A stretch of DNA of 64,000 nucleotides, taken from the NCBI RefSeq assembly GCF_003399445.1, contig NZ_QUQO01000001.1, forward strand, positions 248,001 to 312,000. Reading direction: 5' to 3'. The stretch is from Parvularcula marina. GTDB taxonomy: Bacteria > Pseudomonadota > Alphaproteobacteria > Caulobacterales > Parvularculaceae. The position numbers were made by a program, and so were the translations under genes. The stretch's first letter is position 1, and the number at the start of each line of letters is the position of its first letter. The notes under the pieces were generated by a model. The model was not told where the DNA came from, made no database searches, and worked only from the letters and a program-made list of their open reading frames with translations. This document shows positions 3,983-4,109 of the stretch, piece by piece.

Positions 3983-4007
3983 AAAAAAACCCGGCAACTA
4001 GGCCGGG
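3983..4007 (-). terminator. Rho-independent terminator in the arg operon leader (probable attenuator)
   Basis: On the minus strand a CCCGGC/GCCGGG stem (4007-4002 and 3995-3990) with a 6-nt loop is followed by seven T (3989-3983). It lies after the Arg-rich leader peptide stop (4032) and just before the argF' start (3974). Terminating here would switch off the whole operon. An 8-bp perfect complement (4049-4056 within the leader codons, and 4008-4015 directly before the terminator stem) and a small hairpin at 4027-4040 over the leader stop give possible alternative folds. Confidence 0.85.
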
Positions 4008-4031
4008 CGCGTGCGGGGAACGTCGCTGCGG

Positions 4032-4109
4032 TCAGCCGCAACGGCGCGCGCACGCGTTTCGGCGGCGTCGCGACAGTCCCATATCGAAGTTGGTCACAAA
4101 TGTCTTCAC
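4032..4109 (-). CDS. argL: Arg-rich leader peptide of the arginine operon
   Basis: A 25-codon reading frame starts with GTG at 4109 and has AAGGAG 7 nt upstream. Residues 14-17 are four consecutive Arg and residues 22-23 two more (codons CGA, CGC, CGC, CGA, CGC, CGT). The stop is 25 bp before the terminator stem, which precedes argF'. This is the classical layout of ribosome-mediated attenuation: stalling at Arg codons when charged tRNA-Arg is scarce would favour readthrough. The symbol is descriptive. No homolog was searched for, so support comes from ribosome site, codon content, position and the following terminator. Confidence 0.8.
   Translation of the reverse strand: MKTFVTNFDMGLSRRRRNACARRCG

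What the first reader, a model, noticed from the sequence alone, without database searches (positions are those of the whole stretch)
3983..4109. Arg-rich leader peptide and terminator: ribosome-mediated attenuation of an arginine operon
A 25-codon frame with a good ribosome site (AAGGAG, GTG start at 4109) holds six Arg codons, four in a row, and ends 25 bp before a clean Rho-independent terminator that lies directly before argF'. Eight bases in the leader codons (4049-4056) are perfectly complementary to the eight directly before the terminator stem (4008-4015), and a hairpin covers the leader stop. Attenuation is textbook for trp, his, leu and ilv operons, but proteobacterial arg operons are mostly described as repressor-controlled. 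An arginine attenuator on an acetyl-citrulline pathway operon would be unusual.
Basis: partly seen in the sequence, partly recalled or inferred. Interest (0 to 1): 0.87.

Follow-up and report, generated by a model that had tools for sequence, protein, structure and literature searches.

The report
Arginine-coded attenuator leader before argF'
In front of an arginine-making operon lies a tiny gene rich in arginine codons, followed by a transcription stop signal; related bacteria carry the same layout, which looks like a way to sense arginine shortage during translation, although the folding model does not reproduce the switch in this particular copy.

Summary
It is not chance: 5 of 10 same-genus argF' upstream regions have an RRR leader plus terminator (0.005 expected), and little but the Arg run is shared. 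Beyond the genus, 78 Xanthomonadales-type loci share a different Arg leader (GMTSRARR core) plus terminator; three other gammaproteobacterial loci have RRRR(R) leaders. In folding models most relatives switch: the terminator is lost with the ribosome on Arg codons and returns at the stop (7 of 8 modelled singly; 72 of 78 in bulk). ArgR was found in 0 of 61 relatives and 0 of 19 other leader-bearing genomes. A published 124-nt Xanthomonas RNA, function unstudied (sRNA-Xoo5), comes from the same interval.

I read it as an arginine attenuator by position, content and kinship, with an altered or decaying switch. Eight literature searches of an open-licence library showed no arginine attenuator on an arginine-biosynthesis operon in their listings.

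The parts
4136..4166 (-). promoter-like pair CTTGCA (4166-4161) and TAGCTT (4141-4136)
   Evidence: pattern CTTG[ACG]-18..20-TA in the 75 nt before 5 of 6 genus leaders, 92 of 3000 base shuffles; pattern chosen after inspection; the sigma-70 scan did not report it
4117..4122 (-). Shine-Dalgarno AAGGAG
   Evidence: sequence
4032..4109 (-). leader ORF VKTFVTNFDMGLSRRRRNACARRCG*
   Evidence: counterparts in 5 of 9 same-genus relatives
4059..4070 (-). Arg run CGA CGC CGC CGA (codons 14-17), proposed sensing site
   Evidence: CGA enrichment; tRNA set
4041..4046 (-). second Arg pair CGC CGT (codons 22-23)
4049..4056 (-). CGCGTGCG, 5' arm of the 8-bp helix
   Evidence: modelled; 447 of 5000 shuffles give such a match
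4024..4043 (-). hairpin over the leader stop
4008..4015 (-). CGCACGCG, 3' arm of the 8-bp helix, directly before the terminator stem and not overlapping it
3983..4007 (-). intrinsic terminator CCCGGC-CTAGTT-GCCGGG and T7
2955..3974 (-). argF', N-acetylornithine carbamoyltransferase
   Evidence: NF003384 543.4 bits (cut-off 288)
1738..2946 (-). argG, argininosuccinate synthase (start taken at 2946)
   Evidence: NF003385 619.6 bits (cut-off 603)
673..1731 (-). argE-like deacetylase
   Evidence: NF006439 442.3 bits (cut-off 345)
4201..5619 (+). divergent argH, argininosuccinate lyase (start 4201 or 4246)
   Evidence: (TIGR00838 588.3 bits)

Best explanation
The region is the regulatory leader of the argF'-argG-argE'-argB-argC cluster and belongs with a set of arginine-coded attenuator leaders found before argF'. 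RNA polymerase starts upstream of 4122 and a ribosome translates the 25-codon leader. With enough charged tRNA-Arg the ribosome runs to the stop and the terminator at 4007-3983 ends transcription. When charged tRNA-Arg runs short, the ribosome waits at the CGA-containing Arg run, termination falls and the operon is transcribed. Shown: the parts, their non-chance recurrence, no ArgR found, CGA enrichment. Shown by folding models in relatives only: the ribosome-position switch. Inferred: transcription start, translation, the response to arginine, and that the window's copy still responds, since its predicted helix and terminator do not exclude each other as they do in relatives.
For: Arg-run leaders in 6 of 10 same-genus genomes, 5 of them with terminator, 0.005 expected; leader in 6 of 7 genomes with an argH-like sequence upstream on the opposite strand and in 0 of 3 without. 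No - strand gene upstream could own the terminator. Xanthomonadales-type leaders: 69 of 80 loci and 9 of 9; leader tail carries at least 5 nt of the terminator's 3' arm in 76 of 78 and changes with it, GCCGGG or GCTGGG. Modelled switch in 7 of 8 single leaders and 72 of 78 against 79 of 234 synonymously randomised copies. ArgR 0 of 61 and 0 of 19 genomes, control ringing in 9 of 14. CGA 14 of 38 leader Arg codons against 3 of 115 in the same genomes' argF'. Published RNA sRNA-Xoo5 before an argF' gene (PMC3039613).
Against: The window's own copy shows no switch in the model: terminator 0.996-1.0 at Arg 14-17, about 10-11 kcal/mol better than structures leaving its 3' arm free, at every footprint of 6-14 nt and in four energy sets. 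Its lowest terminator probability (about 0.4-0.5) comes with the ribosome at codons 6-9, which are not Arg. The sister genome L003 has the leader but no clear terminator. 4 of 10 genus genomes lack the leader. 6 of 78 bulk leaders do not switch. In L014, L019 and L026 the trough also covers codons before the Arg run. No expression data.
Confidence: 0.62

Rival explanations
1. A decaying attenuator. The lineage of the window and its sister L003 inherited the leader but lost the working switch: L003 lost the terminator, the window's copy lost the competing pairing. The terminator is now a fixed partial brake on the operon.
For: No switch in the window's copy; no clear terminator in L003; the two argF' form one branch, 100/99; 4 of 10 genus genomes have lost or never had the leader.
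Against: Arg run, ribosome site, stop hairpin and a terminator with seven T are all intact; both L002 and L003 keep a run of Arg codons with CGA.
Confidence: 0.24
2. The product is a small RNA. Transcription from the leader promoter normally ends at the terminator to make a short regulatory RNA, and the Arg-rich frame is secondary.
For: A 124-nt RNA is reported from this interval in Xanthomonas oryzae as an sRNA (PMC3039613). A weak Rfam likeness to SorX, 19.2 bits against a gathering score of 46.6.
Against: No family reaches gathering in 8 related loci. Xanthomonadales-type core varies mainly at third positions, pN/pS 0.128, and Arg runs recur in unrelated leaders, which points to translation.
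Confidence: 0.08
3. Coincidence: a chance Arg-rich frame in GC-rich DNA beside an ordinary terminator.
For: The 8-nt match (447 of 5000) and the fold energy (z -1.27) are within shuffle range.
Against: 0 of 200 shuffles of this region; 5 observed against 0.005 expected in the genus.
Confidence: 0.03

Closest known systems
Ribosome-mediated transcription attenuators of amino-acid operons (trp, his, leu, ilv, thr, pheA)
   Same: Short leader ORF with a run of codons for the pathway's end product, then an intrinsic terminator before the first structural gene; relatives show mutually exclusive structures in models.
   Different: Amino acid is arginine; the window's own helix does not exclude the terminator. 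That these operons are the textbook cases is recalled; a 2005 survey names histidine, threonine and phenylalanine attenuators and lists arginine only under T-boxes (PMC1262725, passage).
Salmonella speF leader orf34
   Same: Two consecutive Arg codons in a leader ORF sense arginine by ribosome pausing (PMC6386406, abstract and passages).
   Different: Controls putrescine synthesis, not arginine synthesis; acts through RNase G, Rho and ribosome-site folding, not an intrinsic terminator.
Pseudomonas aeruginosa carA leader
   Same: A leader peptide before an arginine/pyrimidine gene, with attenuation discussed (PMC4997734, passages).
   Different: That paper ties the attenuation to pyrimidines; arginine acts at the transcriptional level there; the original study was not seen.
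sRNA-Xoo5 of Xanthomonas oryzae (PMC3039613)
   Same: A 124-nt RNA (about 130 and 100 nt on Northern) on the strand of, and directly before, PXO_00353, which that paper names N-acetylornithine carbamoyltransferase: the interval where leader and terminator lie in related loci.
   Different: Reported as a new sRNA, not among the three taken to functional study; 'leader' does not occur in its text. Sequence not available here; 124 nt is shorter than leader start to terminator in L113-L116 (about 150-160 nt).
uORF motif before cysS in Rhodobacterales
   Same: Alphaproteobacterial uORF with codons for the amino acid concerned, proposed as ribosome-mediated attenuation (PMC8632094, passages).
   Different: Cysteine and a tRNA synthetase gene.

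Membership tests
ribosome-mediated transcription attenuator | short leader ORF with ribosome site before a premature terminator | tested here: met
ribosome-mediated transcription attenuator | run of codons for the operon's end product | tested here: met
   RRRR plus RR; run kept in 6 of 10 genus genomes
ribosome-mediated transcription attenuator | an antiterminator that excludes the terminator exists | tested here: inconclusive
   a competing helix forms only with codons 12-21 bare, terminator probability about 0.4-0.7
ribosome-mediated transcription attenuator | ribosome on the control codons favours antitermination (this copy) | tested here: not met
   terminator 0.996-1.0 at Arg 14-17; nearest-neighbour folding model only
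ribosome-mediated transcription attenuator | ribosome on the control codons favours antitermination (relatives) | tested here: met
   7 of 7 relatives modelled singly, L019 and L075 partly; 72 of 78 in bulk
ribosome-mediated transcription attenuator | readthrough rises when the amino acid is scarce | not testable with these tools
   needs an experiment
ArgR-repressed arg operon | ArgR repressor in the genome | tested here: not met
   PF01316 0 of 61, TIGR01529 0 of 1, PF01316 0 of 19
Rfam 15 families | match at gathering score | tested here: not met
   window 3700-4500: best 19.2 bits, SorX, gathering 46.6; 8 related loci: none

The most novel reading that the evidence does not exclude
In the window's copy the stalled ribosome is reeled in instead of an antiterminator being built. 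With the ribosome on Arg 14 the RNA from codon 18 to 4008 folds into one long hairpin (8 + 3 + 8 bp) whose base touches both the ribosome's leading edge and the terminator stem. That would hold the ribosome against RNA polymerase just when the terminator must form and block it sterically: attenuation by ribosome proximity, with no competing helix.
Probability: 0.1. Interest if true: 0.82.

Novelty: new variant of a known kind. Interest (0 to 1): 0.62.

Why it matters
Arginine synthesis in proteobacteria is usually described through the ArgR repressor, which a survey calls highly conserved in many gammaproteobacterial groups and absent in other classes (PMC5343134, passage). Bacteria that make arginine through acetylcitrulline and in which no ArgR was found appear to carry an RNA-level arginine sensor before argF' instead, in two unrelated leader types (a bare Arg run and a fixed peptide) and in two classes of bacteria. 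If confirmed, this fills a gap in how these bacteria sense arginine, offers an explanation for a published small RNA of unstudied function, and makes CGA codons read by an inosine tRNA a candidate sensing site. The window's copy asks whether attenuation can work without a competing antiterminator.

Tried and rejected
The 8-bp helix as antiterminator was rejected for this copy. A known RNA family was rejected. An ArgR operator was rejected because no ArgR was found; other repressors were not searched. Inheritance of the leader across the whole family was not supported: 0 of 19 argF' loci from other genera of the family have RRR leader plus terminator (L007 and L017 hold only about 155 nt of upstream DNA, and G014's match gave no locus), and the 16 of these 19 that were put in the tree form a separate argF' group. 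Of 12 new argF' places in other gammaproteobacteria, 11 were examined and none has leader plus terminator, though some have Arg-rich frames without one; L135 was not examined. 8 of the 80 loci have neither leader type with a terminator.

Own errors and limits: one search read loci of - matches in the wrong orientation and is superseded. One search counted argH codons in the wrong frame; its argH and 'sum' rows are void, corrected. Rows were chosen by a motif, which lowers pN; the 9 loci were chosen by argF' alone and 9 of 9 carry the core. The synonymous control keeps the amino acids and still gives 79 of 234, so part of the switch comes with the coding sequence. The 6 of 78 that fail are L058, L068, L076, L114, L115, L116; the last three are Xanthomonadaceae-like. 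The promoter pattern was chosen after inspection. The argH sign in L006 lies 872 nt away and may be chance.

Full report
What is in the window. On the - strand, between divergent argH (+, from 4201 or 4246) and argF' (2955-3974, -), lie a ribosome site AAGGAG (4122-4117), a GTG start (4109) and a 25-codon frame VKTFVTNFDMGLSRRRRNACARRCG* ending at 4032. A hairpin covers the stop (4043-4024), and the terminator CCCGGC-CTAGTT-GCCGGG-T7 (4007-3983) ends 8 nt before the argF' ATG. argF' is N-acetylornithine carbamoyltransferase (NF003384, 543 bits), followed by argG and an argE-like deacetylase. Outside the window on the same strand follow an acetylglutamate kinase joined to an N-acetylglutamate synthase acetyltransferase domain and argC (L123). 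Because argH points away, no - strand gene lies just upstream that could own this terminator; it can only act before argF'.

Chance. An ORF of 10-45 codons with RRR ending 0-80 nt before a terminator was produced in 0 of 200 dinucleotide shuffles of the window's region. Over the 10 same-genus regions 5 were observed and 0.005 expected; over 20 argF' loci outside the genus (19 from the family, one from another family of the order) 0 were observed. The 8-nt complement alone is weak (447 of 5000 codon-order shuffles) and the whole leader folds no better than shuffles (z -1.27).

Same genus. 10 of 10 held genomes of the genus have argF'. Six have an Arg-run leader before it: the window's; L003 VQVTTARHRLFPTRLRRRLPRR*; L006 MKTVATITNRRRRREFCLPAGIVMGDV*; L014 MTSAVHALLPYRRRAISRRCAGACGVRD*; L019 MRTFMHLRRRYRRGRATAR*; L026 VPLLRRRTMTMGRATAR* (start codons chosen by me). 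L019 and L026 are alike; otherwise little but the Arg run is shared. Five of the six have a clear terminator; L003 has not. An argH-like motif lies upstream on the opposite strand in 7 of 10, and 6 of these 7 have the leader; the other 3 have neither (in L006 the motif is 872 nt away and may be chance).

Beyond the genus. Of 80 argF' loci from named genome records (the best 80 of 569), 69 carry a different leader with the core TSRARRP, nearly all ending in ...AG*; many titles are Rhodanobacter, Dyella, Frateuria and Luteibacter. In an even sample of 398 genomes of the phylum 11 have this argF'; 9 of the 11 are outside the window's family, and 9 of 9 have the core GMTSRARR and a terminator. In these 78 loci the leader tail holds at least 5 nt of the terminator's 3' arm in 76. 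Terminators CCCGGC/GCCGGG go with leader GCCGGG, terminators CCCAGC/GCTGGG with leader GCTGGG, so leader, 5' arm and 3' arm change together. Of the two exceptions one has 4 nt; the other had none in the stretch searched and is probably L112, where GCTGGG overlaps and follows the stop. Three further gammaproteobacterial loci have bare Arg runs: L075 ...SISRRRRTGANAAAG* and L109 (Aliikangiella marina) ...SVVRRRRRPYWAGCDGV* with terminators, and L091 ...KTLRRRRRE*, whose terminator with a wobble pair the scan missed and I read by eye. Eleven more distant loci, L124-L134, have no leader with terminator.

Does it switch? I masked the RNA under a ribosome with each leader codon in its A site and computed the terminator probability. 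In 7 of 8 leaders modelled singly it falls while Arg codons are in the A site and returns later. At each footprint of 6-14 nt the trough includes at least one Arg codon, but it shifts by a codon or two. It is deep in L006, L014, L026, L040 and L109. L019 is low at its second and third Arg of the run (0.13, 0.04) but 0.81 at the first. L075 reaches 0.11 with other values 0.3-0.6. In L014, L019 and L026 the trough also covers codons before the Arg run. L014 ends at 0.47 by the strict measure and about 1 by the looser one. L091 shows the antiterminator as minimum-energy structure at codons 18, 19 and 21 but the terminator at Arg 16, 17 and 20. In bulk, 72 of 78 Xanthomonadales-type leaders fall below 0.5 at a core Arg codon and exceed 0.9 at the stop, against 79 of 234 synonymously randomised copies falling below 0.5.

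The window's own copy is the exception among the eight. Its helix 4056-4049/4015-4008 ends exactly where the terminator stem begins, so both form: 0.996-1.0 at Arg 14-17, about 10-11 kcal/mol better than structures leaving the 3' arm free, and at least 0.94 in four energy sets at 25 and 37 C. A helix that takes up part of the terminator's 5' arm appears when codons 12-21 are bare, with the ribosome upstream of about codon 10 or absent; it uses the Arg codons themselves. Either an effect outside the nearest-neighbour model restores the switch, or this lineage is losing it. The missing terminator of the sister genome L003 and the joint branch of the two (100/99 in a tree of 43 rows) fit loss.

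Sensor. CGA makes up 14 of 38 Arg codons in the six genus leaders and 3 of 115 in the same genomes' argF' matches (Fisher 1.6e-7). In the window genome's arg genes it is 4 of 134 (argF, argG, argE; argH, argC, argB). In the Xanthomonadales-type core the last Arg is CGA in 78 of 78 against 1.9% of Arg codons in argF' of 66 loci. RNA pairing could also favour CGA. The window's genome has tRNA-Arg genes ACG, CCG, CCT and TCT and none read as TCG (41 tRNAs called by ARAGORN from 42 stretches covering 43 Rfam matches). CGA, CGC and CGT then fall to the ACG (inosine) tRNA; that its pairing with CGA is slow is recalled knowledge. ArgR was found in 0 of 61 relatives, own genome included, and 0 of 19 other leader-bearing genomes, the control ringing in 9 of 14.

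In Xanthomonadales-type loci the core varies like a coding sequence: pN/pS 0.128 against 0.726 just upstream, variable sites 2, 1 and 9 by codon position (motif-chosen rows). So the peptide itself may matter there, beyond counting arginines; that is inference.

In print. A 2011 study of Xanthomonas oryzae lists sRNA-Xoo5, 124 nt, on the strand of and before PXO_00353, which its Table 4 names N-acetylornithine carbamoyltransferase; two bands in early growth, one later; similar sequence in other Xanthomonas but none in Xylella; not among the three RNAs taken to functional study (PMC3039613, section 9 and passages). I read it as the terminated leader or a product of it; the length does not match exactly and I could not place its ends. 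Eight searches for arginine attenuation and one for sRNA-Xoo5 of an open-licence library showed, in the rows listed, no report of arginine attenuation before an arginine-biosynthesis operon; listings were capped and most subscription papers are not held. The closest precedent seen is the Arg-codon leader of Salmonella speF (PMC6386406, passages). The main text of a survey of premature terminators has no 'arginine' or 'argF' (PMC2965389, term search).

Verdict. Confidence that this leader acts as an arginine attenuator: 0.62.

Noticed in passing
L032-L120, upstream of argF': A fixed leader peptide core (AR.A.GMTSRARR) before argF' in 78 loci, with codons free to vary at third positions: a candidate nascent-chain sensor, of a different type from the window's Arg run.
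   Followed up: partly
PMC3039613, sRNA-Xoo5: A published small RNA directly before an argF' gene in Xanthomonas oryzae may be the terminated leader.
   Followed up: partly
L006 and L014, leader start: The promoter-like element lies so close that the leader ATG would be at or within a few bases of the transcript start, so the leader may be read from a leaderless RNA.
   Followed up: no
window 3963-3982 (-): No clear ribosome site before the argF' ATG at 3974; a three-codon frame ATG CCT CAA TGA overlaps it as ATGA, and an AAAAGGA lies before an in-frame ATT further in.
   Followed up: no
window 5723-8215 (-) and 8735-11134 (-): Two large, similar RTX calcium-binding repeat proteins side by side (PF00353).
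   Followed up: partly
L123:7358-8680 (-): Acetylglutamate kinase joined to the acetyltransferase domain of N-acetylglutamate synthase in the same cluster (NF003387 566 bits; PF00696 and PF04768).
   Followed up: yes
argF' tree: argF' of the window's genus does not group with that of the other genera of its family, and the window plus L003 stand apart from the other eight genus members; transfer is possible.
   Followed up: partly
G610, loci L131 and L135: One gammaproteobacterial genome has two argF'-like genes, the second below the family cut-off.
   Followed up: no
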